Positions 1,681 to 18,147 of a stretch of 18,844 nt of DNA are shown here, piece by piece. Source of the DNA: Flavobacteriaceae bacterium. GTDB taxonomy: Bacteria > Bacteroidota > Bacteroidia > Flavobacteriales > Flavobacteriaceae. The stretch covers positions 1-18,844 of the forward strand of contig JAUVCP010000004.1 of assembly GCA_030590765.1 (NCBI GenBank), in the 5' to 3' direction. Every line of letters starts with the position of its first letter. The stretch's first letter is position 1. Position numbers and translations under genes: made by a program. The notes under the pieces are model-generated. The model did not search any database. It was not told where the DNA came from and worked only from the letters and a program-made list of their open reading frames with translations.

Positions 1681-4038
1681 ATGAAGCGACAATTCGTAAA
1701 TTCTGATACTAAAAGAAGTATAAAGTCCATTACACTTGTTTTTTTATTTTTTATATCTAACCAAATAGTTGCACAAAAAGATTTAATAATTCAACCTACT
1801 GAATCTCATCCTATTATTGAGTTAGATCAGTGGCAAGTTCATATGGGTGATCTGACTGTTGATCAGGTTTTTGAAACAAATTCAAAAACAAAATGGGAAC
1901 GGGAAAGTATCGGTCATATTTGGCGAGAGAAGAATCAAGTTAAATGGTATAAAAAAGAAATTACTTTACCCGATTCTTTTAAAAGAAGAGACATTGTCAT
2001 GGAGTTTAGAGTAACCTGTGGAGGAAGTATTTTTGTTGATGGAAAGGAAATGTTCCAGTCAAATACTTCCAATGGAAGTGGTATTCTGGTAAATAATGCA
2101 AAGGCAGGCACCAAATTTACAATTGCTGTAAAAGTGAAGAATCATAGTGGAAGTTGTAGTTTTATTCAAGCAGACCTGACAGCTTTACCCCATGGTTACG
2201 CACAATTCTTTTCTTCAAAAAAGAAATTAGTATTCAATTCAAAAGGTATTTCTATAGATCATTTGAAAAGGAAATTATATGATTCCAATGAAGATATCCC
2301 TGACCAATCCTATGATGATAGTAATTGGGAGGAAGTATCATTAAATGATAACTGGGAAGGAGAAAATAAGCATGCATGGTACAGAACCAGCTTTAAGGTT
2401 CCAAAAGAGATTAATGGATTTAGTACGCAAGGTCGAGCTTTGCGAATAAGCCTTAGTACAGATGATCGTGGAGATCTTTATGCCAATGGAGTAATAAAAA
2501 TAAGTGCTCATGAAAAGAGATTTGAGACGATCATAACCACATCTGCTGATATTGAAAAACCTATCTTACTGGCATTAAAAGTGTATAACAATAGCGGTTC
2601 GGGTGGGTTGGCTGGAGCCAGCATCATCACAGAAGAAGAATATCAGTTAAAATCTGATCTTAGAGATGTTGTTAGAAGAGTTGACCGGGTGGAGAGATAT
2701 TTAAAAAGTAATCCGAAACCCAAGGTAAAGATTGTTAATTACCTATCGAATCTTATCTGTTTTAAATTGGATGAAAAACCTTTATCTAAAAAATTGGATT
2801 TGCTGACAAGTATGTTGAACCAGGTAGAAGCAGAATTAGCCAAAGATCCTACCTTTTTAATACTTCCTTATTTGCAATCGGCTGAAAAAACAGGAATGAC
2901 CATTAAATGGGAAACTATTTACCCAACTCATGGTCATATTGAGTATGGAAAGACTAAGAACTTTGGCAAAAAAACAATTGAAGAAGCAAATCCAAACTTA
3001 ATTCACCAACTAACCATAGTAGGACTTGAGCCTGATCAAAAGTACTATTACAGAGTCGTTTGTGGAAATCTGAGTAGTCCGATCTCAACCTTTACAACAA
3101 AACCAGACAGCAATAAACCTTTCAAATTTATTGTTTATGGTGATAACCGAACACAGGTTAAAGTTCACGAGAGAATTTCCAGACAAATTGCAAAAGAAAA
3201 TAGTGATTTTGTGATCAATGTGGGAGATGTTGTATCTCGTGGTGAAGTACTTCCTCAATGGATTGATGAATATTTTCTTCCAATTGGTGCATATAGTAGT
3301 ACTACACCAAGTTATATTTCTATCGGAAATCATGAATATGGAGGGTATTGGGATAAGAGAAAAGTACCTCCTTTTGAAAAGTATGTAAGTCATCCAATTG
3401 GAACGGTAGGAAGTACGCAATATTATTTTTCTTTTGATTATGGAAATTCCCATTTCATCATTTTGGATCCTAATGAGGGAGAAAATGGCGGTGATGATTC
3501 TATTATTTCACCTGATAGTCAACAATATAATTGGTTTATACAAGACCTAAAAGAAGCTCAAAAAACAAGTGACTGGATCTTTGTTATTATGCATGAGCCA
3601 CCATATTCTGAATGCTGGTCGGGTGGTTATTATGATGGGGAGCCTCCTTTACGGAAGTATATTGTGCCAATTATCGAGGCAAATAATGTTTCGATCGTAT
3701 TTGCTGGTCACACTCACGATTACGAAAGAGGATTACCCCATGAAACTTACGATCCAAAAACAGGAAAGGGAAATAATGCTGCTTATATCATTACCGGTGG
3801 CGGGGGAGCCAGTTTAGATGATCATAAATATTTCGAATGGGATCAAATTGACCTGCCAGATCATCCTGCTAATCCTGATAATGATGAATATGATGGAGGA
3901 AAATATTATAAGTACCACTATGTTGTAGTGGAAGTAAATGGAAAAAAAATAAAAGTAAAAGCTGTTGAAGTAAACGGTGACGGAACAAATGGTGGTGTTT
4001 TTGATTCATTTGAGATGAGATCTCCTTTTAACAAATAA
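1681..4038 (+). CDS. Exported purple-acid-phosphatase-like metallophosphoesterase with two N-terminal sugar-binding-like beta-sandwiches
   Basis: The N-terminus is a signal peptide (basic start, hydrophobic stretch at about 17-30, cut near IVA-Q). Two GH2-type jelly-roll segments follow, at about 38-168 and 195-320; the second carries the typical Y-D-D-S-N-W and a W-Y-R-T-S-F strand. A charged helical linker (320-395) leads to a fibronectin-like PAP N-terminal domain (about 395-475). The C-terminal metallophosphoesterase domain (480-770) shows the full metal set: D488 (GDN), D516 (GD), N550-H551 (GNHE), H638 (MHEPPY), H677 and H679 (GHTHDYER). The tyrosine ligand of true purple acid phosphatases (GDxxY) is replaced by serine at 519, so PAP-like is safer than PAP. 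It probably hydrolyses phosphate esters in the periplasm or outside; substrate unknown. At 785 residues it is much longer than the shorter relative on the minus strand at 8913-10055. The two extra sandwiches suggest docking to a glycan. Confidence 0.9.
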
Positions 4039-4120
4039 GGCTCTACCACGAATTTAATGAAAAATAGAAATATCGAATACAAAATTAAATTTAGAAGTTC
4101 GACTTTAAAAAACAAATTTT

Positions 4121-4290
4121 GATCGGATAGTGCTGGCCGCAGTGATAATGAATGAAGTACCGGAATTGCGTTTATCGCAGCACAGCAAGATAAAAAGAGC
4201 ATGCAGGTACGGGAATGAATGGTGCGCAGCAATCACCTTGGGCAGTAGAGGTTTTTTTGTTTCTTTTTTTATCCAAAAAAAGAAAAAGAA
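4121..4290. repeat. GC-richer, hairpin-rich intergenic element (candidate interspersed repeat)
   Basis: This is the only gene-free stretch above 300 bases (4039-4346). Bases 4121-4250 have 64 G/C of 130 (49 percent), well above the very AT-rich 4039-4120 and the neighbouring genes. The element has a small hairpin TTGCG-TTTAT-CGCAG (4166-4180), and GTACC (4157-4161) faces GGTAC (4206-4210). At its right end is a perfect 11-bp inverted repeat, TTTCTTTTTTT (4260-4270) against AAAAAAAGAAA (4275-4285), with loop ATCC. I recall similar poly-T/poly-A tipped intergenic sequences as recurrent in Bacteroidota genomes, but copy number cannot be tested here. A 63-codon frame crossing it (4130-4321) looks like a chance by-product. 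It could also be an untranslated leader or small RNA. Confidence 0.4.
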
Positions 4291-4292
4291 AT

Positions 4293-4318
4293 TAATTTTG
4301 GTGATATACCCATCAAAA
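4293..4318 (+). promoter_or_regulatory. Candidate -7 box overlapping an 8-bp hairpin upstream of the MBL-fold gene
   Basis: TAATTTTG at 4293-4300 fits the Bacteroidota -7 consensus TAnnTTTG and lies 46 bases before the ATG at 4347, giving a leader of roughly 39 bases. No clear TTTG -33 box is found at the usual distance. The box overlaps an inverted repeat, TTTTGGTG (4296-4303) against CATCAAAA (4311-4318), which pairs over 8 positions with one G-T wobble around a 7-base loop. That could be an operator or the edge of the upstream repeat. In DNA this AT-rich the box alone could occur by chance. Confidence 0.35.
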
Positions 4319-4346
4319 TAACAATAGAACCATAAATAAAATAATC

Positions 4347-5471
4347 ATGAAAAAACCTATTAAGTTAAGTTCCATATTTACAATCATATTGATACTGATT
4401 GCTGTAATTGGAACAACTGAATTACAGGCACAGGTTAAAAAAGGAATGTATGATAAAATGAAAGGTGGCGGTATTCCGGATACACAATTAAGTCAAAAGG
4501 ACAATGACTATCTGGATAGGCAGGCAGCAGTATTTTTAGATTCAGTACAATCCATTATTTCTGAGTTTCCTCCACAAATAAAGGAGGCAAGAGAAAGGGG
4601 AATGGCAAAATTATTAATGGATGCTGTTTTTCATGAGCATTTTGCAGCATTTAGAAAACCTGCTCAACAATTCTTTCATTCTCAGGCAAATAAAGTTATT
4701 ACAGAACTGGAAAATACAAAAGTTACTAAGGGTGCTAAGATCTGGAAAATATACAATATGGGTTTTATTGTAAAAACAAAGACGGTAACAATGGCATTTG
4801 ATCTGGTTACAGGAGAAACTTCAGGATCAGATGACTTTAAATTGAATCAAAAAGAGATTGAACGTCTTGTTGCACAATGTGATGTATTGTTTATAAGTCA
4901 CTGGCATCCGGATCATGCAGATCCCAGAATAGCCCAGGAATTTTTAGATCTGGGACGTGCAGTGATTGCTCCTGATCAGGTTTGGAAAGGAAAACCTATA
5001 CATTCAGAAATACTTCATATGGAACGTATTGCACATAAAACTCAAAAGCTCCAACTTCAAAACCAGGAGTTAAAAGTTGTTGTTAATCCCGGACATCAAA
5101 TGAAATCACATATCAACAATGTTGTTTTGGTCACAACTCAGGAAGGAATAACCATTGCTCATACGGGTGATCAGATCAATGAAGGTGATTTTATGATTGA
5201 TTTTGAATGGATTGACGAGGTATATAAACATAATAAAGTGGATATCATGATGCCAAATGCATGGACAATGGACATCTTAAGACAAGTAAAAGGTTTTAAG
5301 CCAAAACTGGTGATGCCGGGACATGAATTGGAATTGGGGCATACTGTTTGGGACAGACTACCCTATTGGGGAGATGATAAATATCTGGAACTTAATTATG
5401 CTGAGCTAAAAGCATCCAAATATCCGGTTATAGCATTGATATGGGGAGAATCATATCACTATTATAAATAA
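4347..5471 (+). CDS. Exported metallo-beta-lactamase-fold hydrolase
   Basis: A signal peptide (KKP start, hydrophobic IFTIILILIAVIG, then LQAQ) directs export. The C-terminal two thirds is an MBL fold. It has the metal motif H185-x-H187-x-D189-H190 (SHWHPDHAD), a further histidine in NPGH (H250) or KSH (H255), a bridging aspartate in HTGD (D275) and a final histidine in MPGH (H326). This complete two-metal set implies an active hydrolase. Residues 40-135 are a mainly helical N-terminal segment I do not recognise. The fold includes lactonases, alkylsulfatases, phosphodiesterases and beta-lactamases, and nothing seen here decides among them. The pattern is closer to the UlaG/Lactamase_B_2 branch than to class B beta-lactamases. 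The gene sits 29 bases before the rhamnosidase and probably shares its transcript, so a role on a glycan-derived ester or lactone is possible but inferred. Confidence 0.85.
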   Translation: MKKPIKLSSIFTIILILIAVIGTTELQAQVKKGMYDKMKGGGIPDTQLSQKDNDYLDRQAAVFLDSVQSIISEFPPQIKEARERGMAKLLMDAVFHEHFAAFRKPAQQFFHSQANKVITELENTKVTKGAKIWKIYNMGFIVKTKTVTMAFDLVTGETSGSDDFKLNQKEIERLVAQCDVLFISHWHPDHADPRIAQEFLDLGRAVIAPDQVWKGKPIHSEILHMERIAHKTQKLQLQNQELKVVVNPGHQMKSHINNVVLVTTQEGITIAHTGDQINEGDFMIDFEWIDEVYKHNKVDIMMPNAWTMDILRQVKGFKPKLVMPGHELELGHTVWDRLPYWGDDKYLELNYAELKASKYPVIALIWGESYHYYK

Positions 5472-5500
5472 TTCTCCATCAACTCCTATAGAAATAAACA

Positions 5501-8500
5501 ATGAAATATTTCAATCTATTTATTTTAAGCCTAACATTGTTCTTTTCATCATGTGATAAGAAAGTTCTGGACCTAAGTTCACCATTAGAACTTCAATGTG
5601 AATATTTAAGCGATCCTCTGGGAATTGATGTAAATTCTCCTAGACTAAGCTGGAAATTATCCCCTAACGGATCTTACACAAAACAACAAGCTTATCAAAT
5701 TTTAGTAGCGGATAATCAAAAGGATCTAGATAATAATATTGGAAATCTATGGGATACTAAAAGAGTAGAGTCCTATCAATCCATTCAATTAAAATACAAG
5801 GGAAAGAAATTAGAATCCAGACAAAAGGTTTATTGGAAAATAAGGGTATGGAATCAGAACAATAAAGTTTCTAACTGGAGTAAAATCGCTATATGGGAAA
5901 TGGCTTTATTGCATCCATCAGACTGGAAAGCAAAATGGGTTGGAACAAAAGATTCAAAAAAAATAAAGTGGAAAAAAAAGAACCCCACCTCTTACTTCAG
6001 AAAAGAATTTACTGTAAAAAATGACATTCAAAATTCCCGTGCATTTATAAGCGCTATAGGATATTATGAATTGTACATCAATGGAGAAAAAGTTGGAGAT
6101 CATGTATTATCTCCAAATCAAAGCAATTACAACAAACGACAAGAGGCTGATTTTGATGATAATAGAGTTTCTAATTTAACATCACGAAACCTTTATGTAA
6201 CCTATGATATTGGCAAACATTTACAGCAAGGTAAAAATGTTGTTTCCATTATTTTGGGAAATGGATGGTCTTATCGGACAGAAAGAGATGAATATGTACC
6301 TCTAAGCTATGGTTTACCAAGTTTTATTGTCCAGTTAGAAATGGTTGATTCCAAAGGCAAAACGCAACAAATTGTGAGTGATACTTCGTGGAAATACAAC
6401 AAAGGTCCCATAGCAGAAAACAGTATTTATTATGGAGAAGTTTACGACGCACGATTAGAACAACCTGGCTGGAACAAAGCTGGGTTTGATGATAAAAGCT
6501 GGGGTAATTCCGAAATTTATGACAGTCCTGATGGAAAGCTAAAGGCTCAAATGTCTGCTCCAGATAGAGTTACCGGTACGATAAAACCTGTATCTATAAA
6601 AACTCTTAAAAAAGGAGTTTATGTATATGATTTCGGAACTGTTTTCTCCGGATGGGTACAATTAAAGGTGAAAGGTAAAAGAGGGAATGTATTAAAAATG
6701 ACCTTTCTGGAAGATAGTGGTAATAACTTTGAGCAAAGTGATACTTATATTCTCAAAGGAGAAGGAATAGAAATTTGGGAACCTAAATTTACATGGCATG
6801 CATTTCGTTATGTGGAAGTTTCCAGTCCTGATATTTCATTAACAATTGAAAACTTAGAAGGAAAATTAGTACATACCGATGTAAATTCAGCTGGGACTTT
6901 TGAATCCTCTAATGAATTATTTAACAGAGTATTGAGAGATTTTAAAAAGACTCAATTGGATAATATGCATGGAGGTATTCCAAGTGATTGTCCACATCGT
7001 GAACGACGTGGTTATACAGGCGATGGTCAAATTGCAGCACAAGCGGCAATTTATAGTCTGGATATGAAAAGTTTTTACACCAAGTGGTTATATGACATTG
7101 CTGATTCTCAGAATAGTACAACTGGATATGTTCCTAATACAGCTCCTTACCAAAGTGGCGGTGGCGGAACTCCCTGGGGCTCTGCATATATTATAATTCC
7201 TTGGTATATGTACCTATATTATGGTGATACCACCGTTTTAGAGGAACATTATAAAGGAATGAAACTATTTCTTGACTATCTGGAAACACAAACGGATAAG
7301 GATGGATTGATCATTGAAAATAATTTAGGTGAATGGGTTCCTCCAACGGCTACTAAAATTCCACCTTCATTTGTGAGTTCTGCATATTATTATTACGATT
7401 TAACACTTATGCAAAATATTGCAACTGTTTTGAAAAAAGACCAAGATGCAGAGATATTTTTCAAAATCAAAGAGGGAGTAAAAAATTCTTTTAATAAACG
7501 ATATTATAAAACTAATGAATCCAGTTATTCTATAGGCTGGCAGGGAGCAAATGTATTTCCTTTAGCTTTTGATCTTGTACCCAAAAAACATATAGAATCA
7601 GTCTTTAATACACTGGTTAAAAATGTGGAAGTAAAAGCAAAAGGACATTTTGATACCGGTATGATGGCAACTCCATATTTATTGGAAGTGCTTACAAAAT
7701 ATGGGCGAACTGATCTGGCTTACACAGTAATGAACCGTAGAGATTTCCCAAGTTTTGGTTATAATATTGAAAGAGGATCAACAACACTTTGGGAAGACTG
7801 GGTTGGTAATGATTCTCACAGTCATCCCATGTTTGGAAGTGTTACAGCATGGTTTTTTCAGGGTTTAGGTGGAATAAATCCAGATCCTAAAAACCCTGGG
7901 TTTAAACACACAATTATAAAACCAAATATTGTGAGTGAAATAGATTATGTAAACACAATATTCCCTTCCGTTTATGGAGAAATCAAATCTAACTGGAATA
8001 TAAAAAATGGTGATTTTAAGCTTTTTGTTACAATTCCTCCAAATACAAATGCCTCCATTTTTATTCCTGCAGGAAATAAAGATAATACAAGTGTAGATAA
8101 TTCAGATGCTGAATTTATGGGTTATGAAAATAATTTCGTGCATTATGAAGTCCCTTCCGGTAATTATCAATTTATTTCCAAAAACATAAAGGGATTGACA
8201 AAAACTCCAATGCTTTCCATTCCGGTTATCCATCCTGCAGACTCAACACTTTTTTCTCCAGATTCTGTAAAGATCCATATACACCAATATTCAAAAGACG
8301 CTGAGATTAGATATACTTTGGATGGTTCTGAACCAAAAAAAGATTCAAAATTATTTGCACAGCCTTTTATGCTTGATAAAAGCACAATTGTAAAAGCAAG
8401 AACATTTAAAAAAGGATCAGATCCCAGTTTTACAAAAATGAATAGAATTTCTTTTATTGATTCACTTAAAAATGGAATGCATTATAATTATTATGTGGGC

Positions 8501-8890
8501 ACTTGGGTAAAACTTCCTCAATTTTCAAAATTAAAATCCATAAGAACCGGTAAAGTGTCTCATGTTTCTTTGGGTGAATTTGACGAATTTGACAATGCAT
8601 TTGGAATTGTTTTTTTTGGAGAAATAGACATCCGCAAAGAAAATATTTACACTTTTTATTTGCGATCAAATGATGGCAGCAGATTATTTATTGACAATAA
8701 GGAGGTAATTAATTTTGATGGGCTACATGGATCCTCTTTTAAATCAGGAAGAATTAAATTAAGTAAAGGAAGACATCCTATTAAGCTGGAATACTTCCAG
8801 GCAGGAGGAGGCAAAGGTCTTGAATTATATTTTGAAAGTAGTGAAATAGAAAAACAATTGATTCCTTCAGATCTGCTTTTTATTGAATGA
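5501..8890 (+). CDS. GH78 alpha-L-rhamnosidase, exported lipoprotein with C-terminal chitobiase-like and PA14 domains
   Basis: A lipoprotein signal ends at C18 (FFSSC), so the protein is probably anchored in an outer membrane leaflet. Domains in order: an Ig-like N-terminal domain (about 25-135); the rhamnosidase N-terminal sandwich (about 140-335, with the strand YYELYINGEKVGDHVLSP); a second sandwich (about 345-460); an (alpha/alpha)6 catalytic barrel (about 465-815); and a C-terminal beta domain (about 815-895). Acidic residues D496, E501 and D508 in the DCPHRER...GD motif have the spacing of the catalytic triad of characterised GH78 enzymes, with E501 the likely general acid. E765 in GSTTLWEDW fits the general base. 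Two extra modules follow: a chitobiase/hexosaminidase C-terminal-like Ig domain (about 905-985, RYTLDGSEP) and a PA14 domain (about 990-1125, RSNDGSRLFIDNK). It releases alpha-linked L-rhamnose from a glycan. Its 1129 residues exceed most GH78 enzymes because of these modules. Confidence 0.95.
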   Translation: MKYFNLFILSLTLFFSSCDKKVLDLSSPLELQCEYLSDPLGIDVNSPRLSWKLSPNGSYTKQQAYQILVADNQKDLDNNIGNLWDTKRVESYQSIQLKYKGKKLESRQKVYWKIRVWNQNNKVSNWSKIAIWEMALLHPSDWKAKWVGTKDSKKIKWKKKNPTSYFRKEFTVKNDIQNSRAFISAIGYYELYINGEKVGDHVLSPNQSNYNKRQEADFDDNRVSNLTSRNLYVTYDIGKHLQQGKNVVSIILGNGWSYRTERDEYVPLSYGLPSFIVQLEMVDSKGKTQQIVSDTSWKYNKGPIAENSIYYGEVYDARLEQPGWNKAGFDDKSWGNSEIYDSPDGKLKAQMSAPDRVTGTIKPVSIKTLKKGVYVYDFGTVFSGWVQLKVKGKRGNVLKMTFLEDSGNNFEQSDTYILKGEGIEIWEPKFTWHAFRYVEVSSPDISLTIENLEGKLVHTDVNSAGTFESSNELFNRVLRDFKKTQLDNMHGGIPSDCPHRERRGYTGDGQIAAQAAIYSLDMKSFYTKWLYDIADSQNSTTGYVPNTAPYQSGGGGTPWGSAYIIIPWYMYLYYGDTTVLEEHYKGMKLFLDYLETQTDKDGLIIENNLGEWVPPTATKIPPSFVSSAYYYYDLTLMQNIATVLKKDQDAEIFFKIKEGVKNSFNKRYYKTNESSYSIGWQGANVFPLAFDLVPKKHIESVFNTLVKNVEVKAKGHFDTGMMATPYLLEVLTKYGRTDLAYTVMNRRDFPSFGYNIERGSTTLWEDWVGNDSHSHPMFGSVTAWFFQGLGGINPDPKNPGFKHTIIKPNIVSEIDYVNTIFPSVYGEIKSNWNIKNGDFKLFVTIPPNTNASIFIPAGNKDNTSVDNSDAEFMGYENNFVHYEVPSGNYQFISKNIKGLTKTPMLSIPVIHPADSTLFSPDSVKIHIHQYSKDAEIRYTLDGSEPKKDSKLFAQPFMLDKSTIVKARTFKKGSDPSFTKMNRISFIDSLKNGMHYNYYVGTWVKLPQFSKLKSIRTGKVSHVSLGEFDEFDNAFGIVFFGEIDIRKENIYTFYLRSNDGSRLFIDNKEVINFDGLHGSSFKSGRIKLSKGRHPIKLEYFQAGGGKGLELYFESSEIEKQLIPSDLLFIE

Positions 8891-8912
8891 TTTGATATTG
8901 ATCAAGACTGTT

Positions 8913-10055
8913 TTACTTCCTTTTTTTTACTTTGATCTCTTCAATAAGTTGCCCATTGATATCAATCGCTTTTAGGATTGCATGTTTTTTCTTTACATCA
9001 ATTCGCATATAGTGTTCTATTTTTTTGTATTTAACAGTCTCAGGCTGAATTGCATCCGTATCATATAAAGGAGCACCTCCACCAGCAGTTACAATATAAT
9101 CAGTTCCACCATGTTTAGCATGGTGGTAATAATGATCGTGACCATTTAAAACAGCAGTAACATGGTGACGCTCAAAAATATCACCCCAGAATTCTCTTCT
9201 CATTTCTGCTTCAGCAACACGTGATTTTTTTATACTGTAATAAGTTGGATGAAAGAAAACAAAAATATATCCTGCATCTTTGTTTAAATTAAGTACATTC
9301 TCTAGCCATTTTTTCTCTTTTTCAAAATAATCTCTGCTAATATTTTGCCAGAATTCATCTTCATTTTCATCTTTAAGATAAGCAGGTGTATTGATATCCT
9401 CTCCATCCATATCTAAAACAATAAATAAAGCATCACCAACGGTAAAGAAATAATAGCTTTCATTTCCGGGTAGTGAAAAGAAATTAAAATAATTATCTGA
9501 ATTTTGTTCATGATTTCCTAAAACCGTGTAATAAGGAGTATGTCTAATCAACCGGTCATTGATATCAAAAAAATGTTCCCAGTCTGGTATACTATTTCCC
9601 CTACCTACAAGGTCTCCAGTATTTACAACAAATAATGGATCTTCCTTTATAATTCTATTTACAATCTTCTGATGCACATCATGACGAGATCGCGTATCTC
9701 CCAAAGTTACAAAAGTAAAAGGTTTTGGCTCTTCTGGAAAAGTAGTAAAACTACCTTTTCCGATATCTGTACCGTCTTTAAAAACATCATAAGTATAGGT
9801 AGTATTTGGTTCAAGTCCGGTAATAATAGATTGATGTTGTTGATACTGACTTACATCCTGAATCACTTTATCAGAATTTTTAATCTCTGTAACTCCTTCA
9901 TAGGTTGACCAAGAAATAGTAACTTCATCATGTGACATTTTTTGTAAATATGGACCGATCATTTTTTGTTGGGCAAGTAATTTATTTCCCGAAAAGGTAC
10001 CAGATAATATGATAATAAATAAAAAAGTGATTTTAGATAGACGTGCAATTTTCAT
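8913..10055 (-). CDS. Exported calcineurin-like metallophosphoesterase (short relative of the 1681-4038 product)
   Basis: A signal peptide (hydrophobic ITFLFIIILSG, ending LLAQQ) is followed by a fibronectin-like PAP N-terminal domain (about 32-108) and a metallophosphoesterase domain (112-375). Metal ligands are D120 (GDTR), D148 (TGD), N181-H182 (GNHE), H269 (FFHP), H306 and H308 (GHDH). As in the larger relative there is no tyrosine in the GDxxY position, so it is not a typical purple enzyme. The stretches FVxNxGDxVxRGxxxPxW and GNHE are shared with the product of 1681-4038, indicating paralogy by ancient duplication or independent recruitment. The gene faces the rhamnosidase tail to tail with only 22 bases between stop codons, and is divergent from the aldehyde dehydrogenase operon. 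The product is probably periplasmic or secreted and acts on phosphate mono- or diesters; substrate unknown. Confidence 0.9.
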   Translation of the reverse strand: MKIARLSKITFLFIIILSGTFSGNKLLAQQKMIGPYLQKMSHDEVTISWSTYEGVTEIKNSDKVIQDVSQYQQHQSIITGLEPNTTYTYDVFKDGTDIGKGSFTTFPEEPKPFTFVTLGDTRSRHDVHQKIVNRIIKEDPLFVVNTGDLVGRGNSIPDWEHFFDINDRLIRHTPYYTVLGNHEQNSDNYFNFFSLPGNESYYFFTVGDALFIVLDMDGEDINTPAYLKDENEDEFWQNISRDYFEKEKKWLENVLNLNKDAGYIFVFFHPTYYSIKKSRVAEAEMRREFWGDIFERHHVTAVLNGHDHYYHHAKHGGTDYIVTAGGGAPLYDTDAIQPETVKYKKIEHYMRIDVKKKHAILKAIDINGQLIEEIKVKKRK

Positions 10056-10345: not shown

Positions 10346-11734
10346 ATGAGTAAATTACAATTGATATCACCTATTGATGGTAGTATTTATATCGAACGTG
10401 AACTTCATACACAAAAAGATATTGACAAGGCCTTAACAGCTGCTGTAAATGCCCAAAAAGAATGGAGATATTTTACCATTGAAGAACGTAAGCCTTATAT
10501 TGAAAAGTTTATAACTGCATTAGAAAGTTTAAAAGATCAAATTAGCACAGAATTAACCTGGCAAATGGGTAGACCCATTAGTCATACTCCATTTGAAGTT
10601 AATGGAGCTATTGAGAGAACAAAAGGAATGTTGAGCCTTGCCGAAAAATCCTTATCAGATGTAAGGGTTGATGAAATATCCGGGTTCAACCGTTTTATTA
10701 AAAAAGAACCGGTTGGAGTTGTTTTTGTGATTCCTGCCTGGAATTATCCTTTCCTGATAGCTGTAAACACAATTATTCCTGCTTTACTTGCCGGAAACGC
10801 TGTAATACTGAAGCATTCAGCACAAACTCTGTTGGTTGCTGAACGTTTTGCTGAAGCTTTTAAAGCTGCAGGATTGCCTGAAGGTCTTTTTCAATATTTA
10901 CATTTAACTCATAGTGATACTGCAAATGTAATAAGAGACTCTCGTGTTAATTTTGTTTCGTTTACAGGTTCTGTTGGTGGCGGACATCAAATTCAAAAAG
11001 TGGCAGGTGAAAGTTTTGTTGGTGTTGGGCTTGAACTTGGTGGAAAAGACCCTGCCTATGTATGTGATGATGCTAACTTAGATTTTTATATAGAAAATCT
11101 GGTTGATGGGGCGTTCTTCAATTCTGGACAATCATGCTGCGGTATTGAACGTATTTATGTTATTGATAGTGTTTACGATCGATTTGTAGAAGGATTTGTT
11201 GAACTTACTAAAAAGTATAAGTTAGGTAATCCATTAGATAAAGAAACCAATCTAGGGCCAGTTGCAAAAAGAAGTGGTGCACAAGATGTGATCGATCAGA
11301 TCGCAGCATCAGTAAAAGCAGGTGGAAAAACTTTGATCGATCCTAAATTATTTCCACAAACTGAGCTTGGCTTTAATTATTTAATGCCTCAGGTTATGGT
11401 TGATGTTGATCATACTATGGATATCATGACGGAAGAAAGTTTTGGTCCTGTTGTGGGAATTATGAAAGTAAAAAATGATGCAGAAGCTTTGGCTCTTATG
11501 AATGATAGTCAGTATGGTTTAACAGCTTCTATCTGGACAGAAGATCAGGATAAGGCACTTTCTATTGGAAACAAAGTAGAAACAGGTACCTGGTTTATGA
11601 ACAGATGTGATTATTTAGATCCTTATCTGTCATGGGCAGGTGTTAAAAATACAGGTCGGGGTTGTACCCTTTCAGCAATTGGATATGACCAACTTACCAG
11701 ACCGAAATCCTATCATCTTCGAACAAAAATCTAA
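10346..11734 (+). CDS. NAD(P)-dependent aldehyde dehydrogenase
   Basis: A cytoplasmic ALDH-superfamily protein of 462 residues, slightly shorter than the usual 480-500. It has the oxyanion asparagine N133 (PAWNYPF), the coenzyme-fold FTGSVGGG segment, the general base E230 (GLELGGK) and the catalytic cysteine C264 (GQSCC), plus the late EESFGPV motif. It oxidises an aldehyde to the acid with NAD(P). It is the first gene of a five-gene run (10346-15849) and is followed 27 bases later by an iron-type alcohol dehydrogenase, so an alcohol-aldehyde-acid sequence is implied. Candidate substrates are L-lactaldehyde from rhamnose (AldA-like role), or a gamma-glutamylated or other amino aldehyde as in Puu-type pathways. 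The sequence alone does not separate these. The start is chosen at the only ATG that keeps the normal N-terminal strand. Confidence 0.93.
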   Translation: MSKLQLISPIDGSIYIERELHTQKDIDKALTAAVNAQKEWRYFTIEERKPYIEKFITALESLKDQISTELTWQMGRPISHTPFEVNGAIERTKGMLSLAEKSLSDVRVDEISGFNRFIKKEPVGVVFVIPAWNYPFLIAVNTIIPALLAGNAVILKHSAQTLLVAERFAEAFKAAGLPEGLFQYLHLTHSDTANVIRDSRVNFVSFTGSVGGGHQIQKVAGESFVGVGLELGGKDPAYVCDDANLDFYIENLVDGAFFNSGQSCCGIERIYVIDSVYDRFVEGFVELTKKYKLGNPLDKETNLGPVAKRSGAQDVIDQIAASVKAGGKTLIDPKLFPQTELGFNYLMPQVMVDVDHTMDIMTEESFGPVVGIMKVKNDAEALALMNDSQYGLTASIWTEDQDKALSIGNKVETGTWFMNRCDYLDPYLSWAGVKNTGRGCTLSAIGYDQLTRPKSYHLRTKI

Positions 11735-11761
11735 TAAAAAAGCAAATAAATAAAAGACAGT

Positions 11762-12907
11762 ATGGCAAATATGAGACATTCCTATTCATTTCCTACCAGA
11801 ATTGAATACGGACCGGGAGCAATGAAAGATTTTACAGCTATTGTAAAAGAGGCTGGAGGTCAAAAAGGATTGATCGTTACCGATAAAGGAATCGAAAAAG
11901 TAGGAACTGTAAAACAACTGCAAGACTATTTTACAGAAGTTGGAGTGGAAACCGTAATTTTTAGTGATGTAAAATCTAATCCTACTGAAGAAAATGTTTT
12001 GGAAGGAACAAAGGTTTACAAAGATTCAAATTGTGATTTTATTGTAGCTCTTGGAGGTGGTTCTCCAATTGACACAGGTAAGACCATTAAAGTAATGGCA
12101 ACACATGATGGACCTCTTGAAAAATATGATGACACAAAAGGTGGGGATAAATATATCAAGAATAATATGCCTCCTTTTTATGCAATTCCAACGACTGCTG
12201 GAACAGGAAGTGAAGTAGGAAGAAGTAGTGTAATTACTGTAAACAATGTAAAAACCATTATTTTTTCACCTTATATGATGCCGGATATTGCAGTGCTTGA
12301 TCCTTTGATCACAGTTTCTCTACCAGCTAAATTAACTGCAGCTACAGGTGTAGATGCATTTGTACATAATTTAGAGGCTTACATTATGGAGACCTTTCAC
12401 CCAATGGCTGACGGGCTTGCAAAAGAAGCTATGGAAATGTGTGTGAAATATTTACCAACAGCGGTAAGTAATGGATCAGATATTGAAGCCAGAGGTAATA
12501 TGTTAATGGCATCTACAATGGGAGCCATTGCTTTCCAAAAAGGTTTGGGAATCAATCATTCTATTGCACATGCTTTAGGTGTTTTTTATGATATGCACCA
12601 CGGTTTGGCAAATGCTGTTGTTTTACCAGAAGTAATGAGATATAATTTATCAAGAGATCAAATCCGTGAAAAATATGCTTCATTAGGAACTATTTTTGGT
12701 GTAGAGAATGATGCTGAAGCTGTTATCACTGCTGTAGAAGAATGGTTAAGATCTATGAATCTGTTAAAAAACTTATCAGAACTTGGTGTTGAAGCAGATA
12801 AACTGGAAGATCTGGAAGCCTATGCTTTAAAAGATCCTTGTTGTCCATTAAATCCAAAGAAAGTAGAAAAAGGGGATGTTGTGGCAATTTTGAAAAATTT
12901 AATCTAA
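11762..12907 (+). CDS. Iron-containing (group III) alcohol dehydrogenase, FucO-like
   Basis: The 381 residues match the family length. The NAD-binding GGGSPID lies at 98-104, followed by PTTAGTGSE. The metal ligands are all present: D198 and H202 in GVDAFVH, H266 in NHSIAHALG and H280 in MHHGLAN. Their spacing nearly reproduces that of E. coli lactaldehyde reductase FucO (D196, H200, H263, H277). The enzyme interconverts a primary alcohol and an aldehyde using NAD(H). With the rhamnosidase upstream, lactaldehyde/1,2-propanediol is a sensible substrate pair. With the amidotransferase downstream, a gamma-glutamyl amino alcohol is another. No fused ALDH domain of the AdhE type is present; that activity comes from the preceding gene. 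The HAD gene begins 14 bases after its stop, so the two are co-transcribed. Confidence 0.93.
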   Translation: MANMRHSYSFPTRIEYGPGAMKDFTAIVKEAGGQKGLIVTDKGIEKVGTVKQLQDYFTEVGVETVIFSDVKSNPTEENVLEGTKVYKDSNCDFIVALGGGSPIDTGKTIKVMATHDGPLEKYDDTKGGDKYIKNNMPPFYAIPTTAGTGSEVGRSSVITVNNVKTIIFSPYMMPDIAVLDPLITVSLPAKLTAATGVDAFVHNLEAYIMETFHPMADGLAKEAMEMCVKYLPTAVSNGSDIEARGNMLMASTMGAIAFQKGLGINHSIAHALGVFYDMHHGLANAVVLPEVMRYNLSRDQIREKYASLGTIFGVENDAEAVITAVEEWLRSMNLLKNLSELGVEADKLEDLEAYALKDPCCPLNPKKVEKGDVVAILKNLI

Positions 12908-12921
12908 ATAAGAAATGAAAT

Positions 12922-13668
12922 ATGATTAAAGCGATCACTTTTGATTTATGGGATACCATTTTTATAGATGACTCTGACGAACCAAAAAGAAAAGCTGCCG
13001 GACGATTGTCAAAAAAAGAGGAAAGAAGACAGCTTGTATTCAATTATGCAAATAAGCATAAAGATGTTAGTAAAGAATTGGTTGACATCATCTACAATAC
13101 TGTAGATGCTTCTTTTAATAAAGTATGGCATGAACAATTTGTAACCTGGGAAATTGGAGAACGATTAGAATTGATTTTTAAAGGATTAGGTATCGAATTA
13201 CCTCAAGATGAAATGGCTGAGATCACCAAACTACATGAAGAAATGGAATTGGAGTTTCGACCAGATTTTATTGATGGAATTGGTGAAGTACTGGAAGAAT
13301 TAAGCAAAAACTATAAAATTGGCGTTATTTCGGATGCCATTGTTAGTCCGGGAAGTGTCCTCAGAGAACTTTTAAAAGGAGAAAATCTATTACAATATTT
13401 TGAGCATTTTGTATTTTCAGATGAAATAGGAAATTCAAAACCTATGCCCATTGTATTTGAATCTGCCTTTAAAAAGTTTGATATAGAACCTCATGAGCTG
13501 GTACATATTGGAGATAGAGAACACAATGATATTCTTGGTCCGATTGCAGTAGGGGCACATGCTTTACTTTGTACTGCAGCAATTGACAGAGATAGTAAAA
13601 ATACAAAAGCAGATGGGATTTTTAGTAATTATAAAGATCTACCACTGCTAATAAAATCAATCAAATAA
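12922..13668 (+). CDS. HAD-superfamily hydrolase with an atypical first motif
   Basis: A 248-residue cytoplasmic HAD protein. Motif I is FDLWDT with nucleophile D8; the +2 position, usually aspartate in HAD phosphatases, is tryptophan 10 and the next residue is D11. Motif II is S137 (GVISD), motif III K173 (GNSKP) and motif IV G197-D198...N202-D203. A helical cap of roughly residues 20-115 is inserted after motif I (C1 type). Loss of the +2 aspartate is seen in haloacid dehalogenase-like enzymes and in some sugar-phosphate phosphatases, so both hydrolysis of a C-X bond and of a phosphate ester are open. Placement between the dehydrogenases and an amidotransferase, with an organophosphate-type transporter in the same operon, leans towards a phosphorylated metabolite. 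The amidotransferase gene starts 3 bases after the stop, indicating tight co-translation. Confidence 0.88.
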   Translation: MIKAITFDLWDTIFIDDSDEPKRKAAGRLSKKEERRQLVFNYANKHKDVSKELVDIIYNTVDASFNKVWHEQFVTWEIGERLELIFKGLGIELPQDEMAEITKLHEEMELEFRPDFIDGIGEVLEELSKNYKIGVISDAIVSPGSVLRELLKGENLLQYFEHFVFSDEIGNSKPMPIVFESAFKKFDIEPHELVHIGDREHNDILGPIAVGAHALLCTAAIDRDSKNTKADGIFSNYKDLPLLIKSIK

Positions 13669-13671
13669 AAA

Positions 13672-14523
13672 ATGAGTAAAAAATTAAATTTTCTGATCAT
13701 AGATGGTTATCCAAAACCAAGCAGAGAACAGTTTGATGATTTTGGGGTAAAATTGGCAGGAGTGTTATATGCTGAATTATTACAAAGACATTTGCCTGAT
13801 GCTGAATATAAGATCCTTTACACAAGTGATCCTGAGACAGAAATTCCTGATCAGGAAAGATTAAAAGCATATGATGCTATTTTATGGCCGGGATGTAATT
13901 TAACTGTTTATCATGATCATGATGAAAGAGTGACTAGGATGACAAAAATATGCGATAATGGGTTTGAATTGGGCTTACCTCAGTTTGGAAGTTGTTGGGC
14001 AGCACAACTGGCTGTTTATGTTGCTGGTGGTGAAGTGGCACCTAATGTAAAAGGCCGCGAAATGGGACTTGCTAGAAAGATCTTTTTAACCGAAGAAGGT
14101 AAAAATCACCCAATGTATAAGGGGAAAACCCAGGTATTTGATGGTTTCATCAGTCATGATGATATCATTACAAAAATGCCAGAAGGCGCCATTAGTTTAG
14201 CTTCCAATGATTTTACACCTATACAGGCCGTTGATGTCAGTTTTAAAAATGGTACATTTTGGTCTCCCCAATACCATCCAGAATATGATTTATATCTAGT
14301 GGCTGGTTTGATCGCTGCCAGAGAAGAAAAATTATCCGGTGAAGGCTATTTTAGAAGTCATGAAGATCTTGTAAATTTTGTTAGTGATCTGAAAACAATT
14401 TATAAAGATCCTACTCGAAAAGATCTTCGCTGGAAATATGGAATAGATGATGATGTTTTATCAGATGATATTCGACAACTTGAATTTGCTAACTGGATAA
14501 AATACCAGATCCTAGAAAAGTAG
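13672..14523 (+). CDS. Stand-alone class I glutamine amidotransferase-like hydrolase
   Basis: A 283-residue GATase1 fold. The nucleophile elbow is F-G-S-C108-W-A-A-Q and the other triad members are H202 and E204 in QYHPEYD. It is a free-standing domain with no synthetase partner fused or adjacent, and resembles the GMP-synthase-like amidotransferases (COG0518 style) more than PuuD. Such free proteins may hydrolyse gamma-glutamyl amides, and class I members of this kind act with an alcohol dehydrogenase and an aldehyde dehydrogenase in gamma-glutamyl amine pathways. The two preceding dehydrogenases therefore suggest, as inference, that it removes glutamate from a gamma-glutamylated acid. The needed gamma-glutamyl-amide ligase is not in the window. 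Alternatively it supplies ammonia to an unlinked enzyme. About 60 C-terminal residues extend beyond the core fold (from about 222) and are charged and helical. Confidence 0.88.
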   Translation: MSKKLNFLIIDGYPKPSREQFDDFGVKLAGVLYAELLQRHLPDAEYKILYTSDPETEIPDQERLKAYDAILWPGCNLTVYHDHDERVTRMTKICDNGFELGLPQFGSCWAAQLAVYVAGGEVAPNVKGREMGLARKIFLTEEGKNHPMYKGKTQVFDGFISHDDIITKMPEGAISLASNDFTPIQAVDVSFKNGTFWSPQYHPEYDLYLVAGLIAAREEKLSGEGYFRSHEDLVNFVSDLKTIYKDPTRKDLRWKYGIDDDVLSDDIRQLEFANWIKYQILEK

Positions 14524-14571
14524 GAGTTAATCTAAAAAACAAAACTTGAAAATAATCTTAACAATTAAAAT

Positions 14572-15849
14572 ATGGCACTGATAGAGGAAGGTCCTTATCG
14601 CAAATGGCAATATAAAATCTTTTCGGCAACTTGGATTGCTTATGTAGGTTACTATTTTGGACGAAAAGCATTTTTTGTTGTAAAAAGTGCCATGGGAGAA
14701 ACATTGGGTGTCGATACCATACAGTTAGCACATCTTGGAACAGCCTATCTTGTTTCTTATATGGTAGGACAATATTCAAGTGCCTACTTTGGACGAAAAC
14801 TTGGACCAAAATATCTGTTGATACTTGGTCTGGCTATAACTTTTATATGTAACCTTGCTTTTGGATTTTCAAATAGTTACTGGACCATCATGCTGTTTTT
14901 AATTATAAATGGATTAGCACAGGGAACCGGATGGCCTGGAAGTATTGGAAGTCTGGCCTATTGGTTCAAACGAAAACAACGGGGAAGCATCCTTGGAATC
15001 TGGTCAACTTGTTATCAAGTAGGGTCTATATTGGCTACATCTTATGCAGCCTATATGTTAGGTCAATATGGATGGAGATGGTCTTTTTTTGGAGGATCAG
15101 CCGTTGTACTCATCATTTGGGCAGGTGTTCTTTACCTACACCCAAATCGTCCGCAAGATGTTGGGCTGGAACCTATTGTAGATGAAGATGAGCTTGAAGA
15201 AGAAGTAGATGAACTGGTTGAAGGGGATAAAAAAGGATTAGGATGGAATAAGGAGGTGGTTTTTACCATTGTAACGATGGGCTTGATTTATTTTGGTATT
15301 AAATTTTTAAGATATGCTTTATGGAGTTGGGTCCCATTTTTACTCAATAATAATTTTGGTCTGGCGGGTGATGATGCTGGATACATTTCTACTGTATTTG
15401 ATATTTTTGGATTTGCAGGAGTAATATTTGCAGGATTTGCATCTGATAAACTTTTTAAGGGCAGAAGGTCTTTTCTTTCCTTTATCATGTTATTTTTTAT
15501 GGCTTTGTCTTTTGTATTGATGTACACCATGGGGTCAACAAGTCTAATGTATTTTACCATTTCTATGGGACTTGCCGGCTTTATGCTTTACGGACCAGAT
15601 TCCTTAATTTCCGGAGTAGGAGCTATTGATATTGGGTCAAAACGTGGTGCTGTAGTTGCTGCAGGAATTATCAATGGAACAGGATCCATCGGACCTATTT
15701 TTCAGGAAGAAATTATTGGATGGTTGTACGAAAAATATGATCACGCTTTAACACCTATATTTCTATTGTTGCTTTTTGTTGCATCTGTAACCGCATTTAT
15801 TACCTTCATTTTATGGTTTAGATCCAGGAAAAAGATTGTACAACTTTAA
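14572..15849 (+). CDS. MFS transporter of the organophosphate:phosphate antiporter (OPA, GlpT/UhpT-like) group
   Basis: A 425-residue inner-membrane protein with a 6+6 arrangement of hydrophobic segments. A strongly acidic cytoplasmic loop separates the halves (about 190-225, with EDELEEEVDELVEGD). Two arginines align by motif with the phosphate-binding pair of E. coli GlpT (R45 and R269): R31 in YYFGRKAFF and R247 in FLRYALWSW. That supports uptake of an organic phosphate or phosphate-like anion rather than a neutral sugar. It ends the run that starts with the aldehyde dehydrogenase, 48 bases after the amidotransferase, so it probably brings in the substrate of that pathway. The exact ligand (glycerol phosphate, a sugar phosphate, phosphoethanolamine or other) cannot be read from the sequence. 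Confidence 0.9.
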   Translation: MALIEEGPYRKWQYKIFSATWIAYVGYYFGRKAFFVVKSAMGETLGVDTIQLAHLGTAYLVSYMVGQYSSAYFGRKLGPKYLLILGLAITFICNLAFGFSNSYWTIMLFLIINGLAQGTGWPGSIGSLAYWFKRKQRGSILGIWSTCYQVGSILATSYAAYMLGQYGWRWSFFGGSAVVLIIWAGVLYLHPNRPQDVGLEPIVDEDELEEEVDELVEGDKKGLGWNKEVVFTIVTMGLIYFGIKFLRYALWSWVPFLLNNNFGLAGDDAGYISTVFDIFGFAGVIFAGFASDKLFKGRRSFLSFIMLFFMALSFVLMYTMGSTSLMYFTISMGLAGFMLYGPDSLISGVGAIDIGSKRGAVVAAGIINGTGSIGPIFQEEIIGWLYEKYDHALTPIFLLLLFVASVTAFITFILWFRSRKKIVQL

Positions 15850-16917: not shown

Positions 16918-18147
16918 ATGAAAATAAAATTAATCCTTTTCATTTTAGCAGTGAGTTTATCTTGTGTAAATTCTAATACACAAAAAACTATTGATCTGGT
17001 AAAAAACTGGAAATTCTCTCCTGATACGGATAATATTGGCCATTCTGAAAAATGGTTTGCCTTAGGTTTTGACGATTCTAAATGGGATATACTGGATGCT
17101 GGCACCAAATGGGAAGATCAGGGATATCCTGATCTGGATTCTTACGGATGGTATAGAAAAAAAGTTGAAGTACCAATAGACTGGAAAGGAAAAGATATTT
17201 GGATAAAATTTGGTGCGGTCAATGATGCCTACGATCTATTTATAAATGGAGAGCAAGTAAGTTCGTTTGGAGCTGCCAATATTACTTTTGCAGATAAGCC
17301 CTCATTTACGAAGGTGACAGAAAAGATCAATTACGGGGAAAGTAATCTGATCACTGTTAAAGTAAATGATTGGGGAAATAGCGGAGGTCTGTGGCGCCTT
17401 CCGGCTATAATAACAATTGACAAGGTAGAGATCGATCTGTTTAAACCATTATCCGACAAATCTTTTAATCTAACAGAAGAGAATTATACTCTTTTTTGGG
17501 AAGATAATTTTAACAGCGATAAACTTGATTCAACAAAATGGGCAGTACGTGGTATTGGTCCCCGTGGTGTAGGTTTCGTAACACCCAATGCTTTAGAAAT
17601 CAAAGATGGTAAATTGATCATCAAGGCATTTATGGAAAATGATTCATTAAAGGTTAGTGCTGTTGGAACACAAGGCCTTTTTGATACAACTTATGGTTAT
17701 TTCGAGTGCAAAGCACAATTACCTAAAACAACAGGAAATTGGGCTGCTTTCTGGATTCAATCTCCTGGTATATCTTCGGGGGAAGATCCAGGAAAATTTG
17801 GTACCGAAATAGATATTTTTGAATACTTTAAAGGTCAGGGTGGTGATTTTGTTTCACACAATCTTCATTGGGCCTACGGACCTAATCAAAAATCGACAGG
17901 AGCATTTCTCAGTAAAGTGGAAGGTATTGGAGAGGGTTTTCACACTTTTGCTGTAGAGTGGACACCTGAGAAATATGCTTTTTTTGTTGATGGATTTAAA
18001 TATCACGAAATCAAGGAAGCAATTTCACATATAGATGAGTACATCATTCTAAGTTTTGAACCTGCACATACTGTAGAGAATCTAAAAACCGCTACCCTAC
18101 CCGATGCCTTTATTATCGATTATGTAAAAGTGTATAAAAAGAATTAA
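16918..18147 (+). CDS. GH16 beta-glycanase lipoprotein with N-terminal GH2-like sugar-binding sandwich
   Basis: A lipoprotein-type signal ends at C16 (AVSLSC). Residues about 20-185 form a GH2 N-terminal-like beta-sandwich (FDDSKW, SYGWYRKKVEVP, DLFINGEQV, GLWR). The GH16 jelly roll follows at about 190-409. The catalytic strand is E297-I-D299-I-F-E302, the ExDxxE pattern of the beta-bulge GH16 branch (laminarinases, agarases, porphyranases, carrageenases), with E297 nucleophile and E302 acid/base. Flanking NWAAFWIQSP and FAVEWTPEKYAFFVDG are typical GH16 strands. It endo-cleaves a beta-linked polysaccharide at the cell surface or in the periplasm, but the exact glycan cannot be fixed. The CPBP gene ends 12 bases upstream and the GH3 gene starts 20 bases downstream, so an endo-acting GH16 followed by an exo-acting GH3 makes a coherent depolymerising pair. 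Confidence 0.93.
   Translation: MKIKLILFILAVSLSCVNSNTQKTIDLVKNWKFSPDTDNIGHSEKWFALGFDDSKWDILDAGTKWEDQGYPDLDSYGWYRKKVEVPIDWKGKDIWIKFGAVNDAYDLFINGEQVSSFGAANITFADKPSFTKVTEKINYGESNLITVKVNDWGNSGGLWRLPAIITIDKVEIDLFKPLSDKSFNLTEENYTLFWEDNFNSDKLDSTKWAVRGIGPRGVGFVTPNALEIKDGKLIIKAFMENDSLKVSAVGTQGLFDTTYGYFECKAQLPKTTGNWAAFWIQSPGISSGEDPGKFGTEIDIFEYFKGQGGDFVSHNLHWAYGPNQKSTGAFLSKVEGIGEGFHTFAVEWTPEKYAFFVDGFKYHEIKEAISHIDEYIILSFEPAHTVENLKTATLPDAFIIDYVKVYKKN

What the first reader, a model, noticed from the sequence alone, without database searches (positions are those of the whole stretch)
10346..15849. Five-gene operon pairing an OPA-type transporter with ALDH, Fe-ADH, HAD hydrolase and a free amidotransferase: a possible undescribed catabolic route
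Seen: five plus-strand genes with gaps of 27, 14, 3 and 48 bases; intact active sites in the two dehydrogenases and the amidotransferase; and both GlpT-like phosphate-binding arginines in the transporter. Known: ADH plus ALDH plus class I amidotransferase is the logic of gamma-glutamyl amine/amino-alcohol degradation (Puu pathway; the GlnA4-initiated ethanolamine route of Streptomyces), while OPA carriers import organophosphates. Inference: uptake of a phosphorylated amino alcohol such as phosphoethanolamine, dephosphorylation, two oxidations and release of glutamate. The gamma-glutamyl ligase is absent from the window, so the chain is incomplete.
Basis: partly seen in the sequence, partly recalled or inferred. 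Interest (0 to 1): 0.7.

Follow-up and report, generated by a model that had tools for sequence, protein, structure and literature searches.

The report
Likely phosphate-linked variant of ethanolamine catabolism
Five neighbouring genes in a Bacteroidota genome form a conserved cassette that most likely imports a phosphate-bearing amino alcohol and oxidises it in a glutamate-capped form, a new variant of a known ethanolamine pathway whose capping enzyme was not found in most carriers.

Summary
In detail: five intact plus-strand genes (ALDH, Fe-ADH, HAD, class I amidotransferase/GAT, OPA-type MFS) with gaps of 27, 14, 3 and 48 bases. The order is conserved: of 78 GAT loci in genome contigs, 17 keep ALDH-ADH-HAD-GAT and 13 add the carrier. 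The gamma-glutamyl idea is supported by kin: the ALDH shares a clade with ALDHs beside GS-like ligases, including ethanolamine-type operons, away from E. coli AldA and PuuC. A Calditrichota locus has ligase-ALDH-ADH-HAD-GAT-OPA in a row. The GAT model is closest to gamma-glutamyl peptidase 1. The carrier groups with PhnW-linked carriers, not GlpT/UhpT/UhpC. Against it: 16 of 23 cassette genomes, the window's own (67% complete) included, show no PuuA-like ligase; the HAD has Trp where phosphatases have the acid Asp (41 of 41); HAD-GAT also travels with PhnW, which points to an aminophosphonate. Substrate and HAD step are inferred. Best reading: a variant of gamma-glutamyl (phospho)ethanolamine catabolism.

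The parts
10346..11734 (+). ALDH: probable gamma-glutamyl-aminoacetaldehyde dehydrogenase
   Evidence: Aldedh E 2.6e-120; 52.8% and 52.7% identical to the ALDHs of Paracoccus and Sinorhizobium GS-ALDH-Fe-ADH operons; 32-row clade (99/98) with eight GS-adjacent ALDHs, apart from E. coli AldA, GabD, BetB, PatD, AldB, PuuC, Sad
11762..12907 (+). Fe-dependent ADH: probable alcohol-to-aldehyde step on the (gamma-glutamyl) amino alcohol
   Evidence: Fe-ADH and ADH_Fe_C; 37-41% identical to five GS-operon Fe-ADHs; apart from FucO, EutG, YiaY (100/100, only three outgroups)
12922..13668 (+). HAD-superfamily protein with Trp at nucleophile+2; phosphate-removing role inferred
   Evidence: HAD_2; D8 40/40, W10 41/41, D11 41/41 in rows that cover them; nearest solved relative by profile 2om6, with the same FDxWxT
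13672..14523 (+). free class I amidotransferase: probable gamma-glutamyl amide hydrolase
14572..15849 (+). OPA-family MFS carrier, grouped with PhnW-linked (AepP-like) carriers
   Evidence: TIGR00881 194 bits, cut-off 407.75; 23-row group 100/100 with four PhnW-linked carriers, apart from GlpT, UhpT, UhpC
8913..10055 (-). divergent calcineurin-like phosphoesterase, possibly an outside supplier; membership not shown
   Evidence: Metallophos E 1.7e-16; at the same place in the close relatives L008 and L009

Best explanation
The five genes are a variant of the gamma-glutamyl ethanolamine pathway adapted to a phosphorylated amino alcohol, most simply phosphoethanolamine. Proposed chain: the AepP-like OPA carrier imports it (inferred); the HAD removes the phosphate before or after glutamylation (inferred, weak); a GS-like ligase joins the amine to glutamate (encoded beside the cassette in some kin, not seen in the window's MAG); the Fe-ADH makes the aldehyde; the ALDH makes gamma-glutamylglycine; the GAT releases glutamate and glycine. 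The ALDH and GAT steps rest on clade, fold and context; the ADH step on weaker homology; substrate, HAD step and ligase identity are inference. Nothing was assayed.
For: Synteny: 17 of 78 loci ALDH-ADH-HAD-GAT, 13 of 78 also OPA. GS-ALDH-ADH-HAD-GAT-OPA in L030 (gaps 13, 14, 61 and 7 bases, then 481 to the carrier start used), and in L034, where the GS is cut by the contig start. The same GS type (64-78% identical to L030's) recurs in the genomes of L022, L034, L061, L075, L080; GS-ALDH or GS-ALDH-ADH modules in the genomes of L049, L053, L075, L080. ALDH clade. L018: TRAP binding protein 60.6% and large permease 58.3% identical to those of the Paracoccus GS operon, near a choline/ethanolamine kinase, the GAT and an Fe-ADH. 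Same kinase family beside the cassette in L014. GDPD beside it in L012 and L033, 72% alike. Paracoccus PD1222 has the gene order that PMC10132767 gives for Phaeobacter's ethanolamine operon, whose proteins rose on phosphorylethanolamine (passages). GAT fold. OPA group.
Against: No PuuA-like ligase in 16 of 23 cassette genomes at thresholds that find it in others; G000 has a GSIII-like hit only. Most are MAGs, so a single absence is weak; sixteen are harder to explain. HAD: Trp at the recalled acid/base position. PhnW over cut-off in 7 of 7 HAD-GAT-only genomes tested (of 24 such loci, cut contigs L025 and L029 aside), against 18 of 229 gammaproteobacteria drawn. L053's genome has a whole ethanolamine-type operon, and L058's contig TRAP genes, GS and ADH, besides HAD-GAT, so there HAD-GAT does something additional. 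ADH similarity to the GS-operon ADHs is only 37-41%.
Confidence: 0.5

Rival explanations
1. Aminophosphonate route: the carrier takes up 2-aminoethylphosphonate or a close derivative, and HAD-GAT act on it or on a gamma-glutamyl form; ADH, PhnW or TauD are alternative ways to the aldehyde that the ALDH oxidises.
For: The OPA groups with PhnW-linked carriers; AepP, an OPA-family 2-AEP permease, is reported also from Bacteroidetes (PMC8316502 passages). PhnW, over the cut-offs of all three PhnW models in L058, lies between HAD-GAT and ALDH in L058 and L059 and after HAD-GAT in L055. PhnW over cut-off in 7 of 7 HAD-GAT-only genomes tested, 18 of 229 controls. The HAD lacks the acid Asp, as phosphonoacetaldehyde hydrolase does (recalled).
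Against: PhnW over cut-off in only 1 of 22 cassette genomes (L034's, one TAA inside the frame; L029's is just under, 357.2 of 360.8 bits), none in G000. PhnX is not among the 25 NCBIfam families the HAD matches at E<=0.001. 2-AEP has no alcohol for the Fe-ADH. The control drew Gammaproteobacteria only and includes L058's own genome.
Confidence: 0.22
2. Direct oxidation without a glutamyl cap: phospho-amino-alcohol to amino alcohol to amino aldehyde to glycine or a betaine, with the GAT in an unrelated or protective role.
For: No PuuA-like ligase in 16 of 23 cassette genomes. The ADH also scores 293.7 bits with the GbsB choline dehydrogenase model, cut-off 550.
Against: The HAD lies within 1.5 kb upstream of the GAT in 46 of 78 loci, and the ALDH belongs to the ligase-linked clade.
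Confidence: 0.15
3. Lactaldehyde metabolism: FucO/AldA-like enzymes serving rhamnose released by the nearby GH78.
For: GH78 at 5501-8890; the ADH matches the lactaldehyde reductase model with 297.4 bits, cut-off 523.
Against: ALDH and ADH lie outside the branches of E. coli AldA and FucO; GH78-like matches lie near the cassette in 3 loci only, at 28-38% identity (L008, L012, L033); GAT and OPA stay unexplained.
Confidence: 0.03

Closest known systems
Ethanolamine gamma-glutamyl operon of Phaeobacter sp. MED193 (PMC10132767, passages) and the operon of the same order in Paracoccus denitrificans PD1222 (L204)
   Same: ALDH in one clade with the Paracoccus ALDH, an Fe-ADH, gamma-glutamyl logic; RpiR regulator beside some cassettes (L019, L023, L025)
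   Different: No ligase in the window; class I GAT where L204 has an N-formylglutamate-amidohydrolase-like enzyme; OPA carrier instead of the TRAP transporter; extra HAD. Phaeobacter sequences were not compared
Streptomyces GlnA4 ethanolamine cluster (PMC6529630, one passage)
   Same: ALDH plus a glutamine amidotransferase, ethanolamine logic
   Different: Short-chain dehydrogenase, glnA4 present, other transporter, no HAD named in the legend seen; sequences not compared
E. coli Puu pathway
   Same: ligase-oxidation-ALDH-amide hydrolase logic
   Different: The window GAT has no significant BLAST match to PuuD (E 0.68) and the ALDH is 30% identical to PuuC; no PuuA-like hit in the window's MAG
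AepP 2-aminoethylphosphonate permease (PMC8316502, passages)
   Same: OPA family; window carrier grouped with PhnW-linked OPA carriers
   Different: P. putida AepP itself was not in hand; the window carrier is 36-39% identical to PhnW-linked carriers, and no PhnW was found in the window's MAG
Arabidopsis gamma-glutamyl peptidase 1 (PDB 9k7i-9k7l)
   Same: best fold match of the GAT
   Different: 15-16% identity; acts in plant glutathione-conjugate processing (recalled)

Membership tests
gamma-glutamyl ethanolamine pathway (Phaeobacter/Paracoccus type) | GS-like gamma-glutamyl ligase encoded with or near the dehydrogenases | tested here: not met
   G000 has only one, GSIII-like, hit in a 743-aa frame (MAG 67% complete). 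Met in kin L030, L034, L022. PuuA-like ligase in 4 of 23 cassette genomes, an outlying 505-516-aa GS in 3, neither in 16
gamma-glutamyl ethanolamine pathway (Phaeobacter/Paracoccus type) | ALDH of the ligase-linked clade | tested here: met
   32-row clade 99/98
gamma-glutamyl ethanolamine pathway (Phaeobacter/Paracoccus type) | Fe-ADH of the pathway's clade | tested here: inconclusive
   37-41% identity to GS-operon ADHs, own sub-clade, three outgroups
gamma-glutamyl ethanolamine pathway (Phaeobacter/Paracoccus type) | N-formylglutamate-amidohydrolase-like terminal hydrolase | tested here: not met
   of the loci in that database only L193 and L086 match the Paracoccus or Sinorhizobium enzyme by tblastn, and the window GAT does not; none among the window proteins by Pfam
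gamma-glutamyl ethanolamine pathway (Phaeobacter/Paracoccus type) | TRAP ethanolamine transporter | tested here: not met
   none among the window proteins; present near the GAT in L018
Puu pathway | PuuD-type hydrolase and PuuA ligase | tested here: not met
   GAT vs PuuD E 0.68; no PuuA-like hit in G000
OPA carriers, AepP-like group | two phosphate-site arginines and a place with PhnW-linked OPA carriers | tested here: met
   R31, R247; 23-row group 100/100, long branches flagged
OPA carriers, AepP-like group | transport of 2-AEP or phosphoethanolamine | not testable with these tools
   needs an uptake assay
HAD phosphatases | DxDx[TV] motif with acid/base Asp at +2 (recalled) | tested here: not met
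   Trp at +2 in 41 of 41 rows covering the motif
PhnWX/PhnWAY 2-AEP degradation | PhnW transaminase | tested here: not met
   no hit in G000 at 1e-20 (MAG 67% complete)
PhnWX/PhnWAY 2-AEP degradation | PhnX hydrolase | tested here: not met
   not among the 25 families matched by the window HAD at E<=0.001; the rest of the MAG was not searched for PhnX

The most novel reading that the evidence does not exclude
The ALDH-GAT pair is a glutamate-cap chassis with exchangeable front ends: HAD plus Fe-ADH for phosphate-bearing amines, and a TauD-type dioxygenase for sulfonates (TauD directly upstream of the GAT in 14 of 78 loci). The TauD relatives keep the residues recalled as sulfonate ligands (H70 in 14 of 15 sequences, R270 in 15 of 15) but have replaced the residues recalled as amine contacts (Y73 kept in 1 of 15, N95 in 0 of 15), as expected if the amine is capped, e.g. 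gamma-glutamyltaurine. In cassettes without any ligase the GAT itself might install the cap by transfer from glutamine as well as remove it.
Probability: 0.15. Interest if true: 0.75.

Novelty: new variant of a known kind. Interest (0 to 1): 0.5.

Why it matters
Phospholipid head groups and aminophosphonates are sources of organic N and P. PMC10132767 (passages) describes extracellular release of ethanolamine from its phosphate ester followed by ethanolamine uptake; this cassette suggests that some bacteria import the phosphorylated amine intact and handle N and P together. It also suggests non-homologous exchange of transporter and terminal hydrolase around a conserved ALDH, and poses a sharp question: how is the cap made where no ligase is found?

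Tried and rejected

Led nowhere or misled: a GSIII query missed the PuuA-like ligases in the loci; they appeared with E. coli PuuA. The Pfam census of neighbours scanned 139 of 161 selected proteins (235 before repeats were dropped) and lists only 25 families, so it could not exclude GS. Motif guesses for GGT, kinase and GS were weak. No viral contig matched the GAT patterns. Plasmid hits of the HAD were 22-35% identical (15 records). Promoter and terminator scans were at or near chance. Strict gene calls gave 11 of 78 five-gene orders, the tblastn count 13 of 78; the 13 include L012, whose carrier matches in two overlapping pieces as if frameshifted, and L024, whose ALDH is cut by the contig start; other loci are cut short by contig ends. 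My gene caller found no GAT in L075, L084 and L085, which one search did count. No structure of the HAD was obtained. Literature: the ten searches listed no title or abstract start that describes this cassette; the library holds open-licence PMC papers only, and most papers were seen only as listings.
Full report
Observation. Five intact plus-strand genes at 10346-15849 are as described, with gaps of 27, 14, 3 and 48 bases. Families: Aldedh, Fe-ADH, HAD_2, GATase, MFS_1. Among the NCBIfam families shown, none reaches its cut-off for ALDH, ADH, GAT or carrier (25 of 44 shown for the ALDH, 25 of 27 for the carrier).

Setting. The window is a contig of a MAG (2.44 Mb, 67% complete). Close copies (86-97% per protein) are in two relatives titled Flavobacteriaceae, reached both as G016/G021 and as L009/L008; identical coordinates and contig lengths show two genomes, not four. 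In one search, 5 of 40 relatives' genomes matched the GAT at 1e-15: the window's own, these two at 95% identity, and two more at 31%. At E<=1e-60 the GAT was found in 1 of 395 genomes of the class, the window's own, and in 3 of 164 of the order of L019's genome. It is patchy and rare.

Conservation. A scan of genome contigs gave 78 loci. By tblastn, 46 of 78 have the HAD within 1.5 kb upstream of the GAT, 17 of 78 have ALDH, ADH and HAD upstream on the same strand, 13 of 78 also the OPA carrier downstream, and 14 of 78 a TauD-type dioxygenase directly upstream. Of the 13, L012's carrier looks frameshifted and L024's ALDH is cut by the contig start. Titles name Bacteroidota groups, Ignavibacteriales, Chlorobiota, Calditrichota, KSB1, Neomarinimicrobiota and others for the cassette, and Hydrogenedentota, Alpha- and Gammaproteobacteria and others for HAD-GAT. 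The scan uses peptide patterns of the query, so distant kin are under-sampled.

Ligase. With E. coli PuuA as query, ligases appear at L030, directly upstream of the ALDH (gaps 13, 14, 61 and 7 bases through GS-ALDH-ADH-HAD-GAT, then 481 to the carrier start used), at L034, cut by the contig start, and at L022, some 5.7 kb upstream of the ADH: 3 of 78 loci. L030's GS has relatives at 64-78% identity in the genomes of L022, L034, L061, L075 and L080, and at 44-45% in those of L053 and L017 (25 of 50 genomes searched matched at 1e-40, many only at 28-38%). GS-ALDH or GS-ALDH-ADH modules were seen in the genomes of L080, L075, L053 and L049, and GS-ADH in that of L058; for L049 and L058 these lie on the same contig as HAD-GAT. 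Counting cassette genomes from L008-L016, L019-L025, L028-L031, L033, L034 plus G000 (23; L025 and L029 are cut contigs with HAD and GAT only), a PuuA-like ligase was found in 4 (G434, G445, G451, G454), an outlying 505-516-aa GS in 3 (G435, G439, G447), neither in 16 (G000 was searched with the Pfam family only). In those 16 the hits were GSIII-like (7), short GS-like frames of 338-345 aa (4), GlnA-like by score (3), or none (2).

Dehydrogenases. The ALDH lies with all eight GS-adjacent ALDHs tested in a clade of 32 of 41 rows (99/98), apart from E. coli AldA, GabD, BetB, PatD, AldB, PuuC and Sad (long outgroup branches are flagged there; of two ALDHs on the Aminobacter plasmid L086, one joins this side deeply, the other joins PuuC). 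Identity is 52.8% to the Paracoccus PD1222 ALDH, 52.7% to Sinorhizobium's and 57.7% to Allomeiothermus's, each next to or one gene away from a GS-family gene. In Paracoccus the order RpiR, N-formylglutamate amidohydrolase, TRAP (3 genes), GS, ALDH, Fe-ADH equals the order that PMC10132767 lists for Phaeobacter MED193's ethanolamine operon (passages); the Phaeobacter sequences were not compared. The Fe-ADH is 37-41% identical to GS-operon ADHs and forms its own sub-clade.

Carrier. In a 34-row tree, 16 cassette carriers, four PhnW-linked carriers and three other Bacteroidota carriers form one side (100/100) against GlpT, UhpT, UhpC and kin; long branches are flagged. PMC8316502 (passages) reports AepP, an OPA-family 2-AEP permease of P. 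putida BIRD-1, also from Bacteroidetes. That sequence was not in hand; the PhnW-linked carriers of L138 and L148-L150 stand in for it. No PhnW match lay near the three other Bacteroidota carriers.

HAD. Nucleophile+2 is Trp in 41 of 41 rows that cover it, and D11, D16, D19, E20, R23, K31 and R35 are invariant there too. In canonical HAD phosphatases this position is Asp (recalled). The nearest solved relative by profile, 2om6, named probable phosphoserine phosphatase, has the same Trp, so the feature is not unique. The phosphatase step is therefore the weakest link.

Context clues. Choline/ethanolamine kinase near the cassette in L014 and near the GAT in L018 (77% alike). GDPD in L012 and L033. 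L018 has a TRAP binding protein 60.6% identical to that of the Paracoccus GS operon. RpiR beside the cassette in L019 and L023, and after the GAT in L025. PhnW between HAD-GAT and ALDH in L058 and L059, and after HAD-GAT in L055. PhnW over cut-off: 7 of 7 HAD-GAT-only genomes tested (L036, L038, L043, L049, L055, L058, L059; these are 7 of 24 such loci, L025 and L029 being counted as cassettes; L043 has an Fe-ADH downstream), 1 of 22 cassette genomes, 0 of 1 for G000, 1 of 2 for GAT-ALDH-ADH without HAD (L054 yes, L057 no), 0 of 3 TauD-type, against 18 of 229 gammaproteobacteria drawn, L058's genome among them. The control does not match the phyla of the seven.

Judgement. The gene set works like the gamma-glutamyl ethanolamine pathway and shares its ALDH clade, but it fails that pathway's membership on ligase (in the window's own genome), terminal hydrolase and transporter. 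I call it a new variant. Phosphoethanolamine is the simplest substrate consistent with carrier group, HAD, kinase/GDPD context and the dehydrogenases; an aminophosphonate is the main rival. Literature seen: PMC10132767, PMC8316502 and PMC6529630 as passages; all other papers only as search listings.

Noticed in passing
L066, L067, L070-L072, L074, L075, L077-L082, L085: TauD-type dioxygenase directly upstream of the GAT in 14 of 78 loci, several with a Na/Ala symporter; recalled sulfonate-site residues kept, recalled amine-contact residues replaced relative to E. coli TauD (the 15 sequences include a second, opposite-strand copy in L067).
   Followed up: partly
L037, L040, L044, L045, L046 (and L035, where no HAD was matched): In Hydrogenedentota-titled loci an acetyl xylan esterase-like gene sits directly upstream of the GAT, between HAD and GAT in five.
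   Followed up: no
L005, L007, L154: Relatives of the window's genus carry a second, different GS + GAT pair (GAT about 31% identical). L007 and L154 are the same genome.
   Followed up: partly
G435, G439, G447 and several proteobacterial genomes: A GS-like protein of about 500 aa, scoring far below GlnA and PuuA types, occurs in some cassette and HAD-GAT genomes; neighbourhood not examined.
   Followed up: no
L027, L032: TauE/SafE-type exporter gene divergent from the GAT in L027 (Pfam) and its cluster-mate in L032.
   Followed up: no
window 77-1654: GH31 gene whose barrel domain matches only profile positions 190-328, so the N-terminal part is missing or out of frame near the window edge.
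   Followed up: no
window 1681-10055 and 16918-18147: Surrounding polysaccharide and phosphoester genes: two calcineurin-like phosphoesterases, GH78 with PA14, a GH16 with a GH2 sugar-binding domain.
   Followed up: partly
L058:16013-17662: One 550-aa protein made of two similar HAD halves, each with a DWHAT motif, near the PhnW-HAD-GAT cluster.
   Followed up: no
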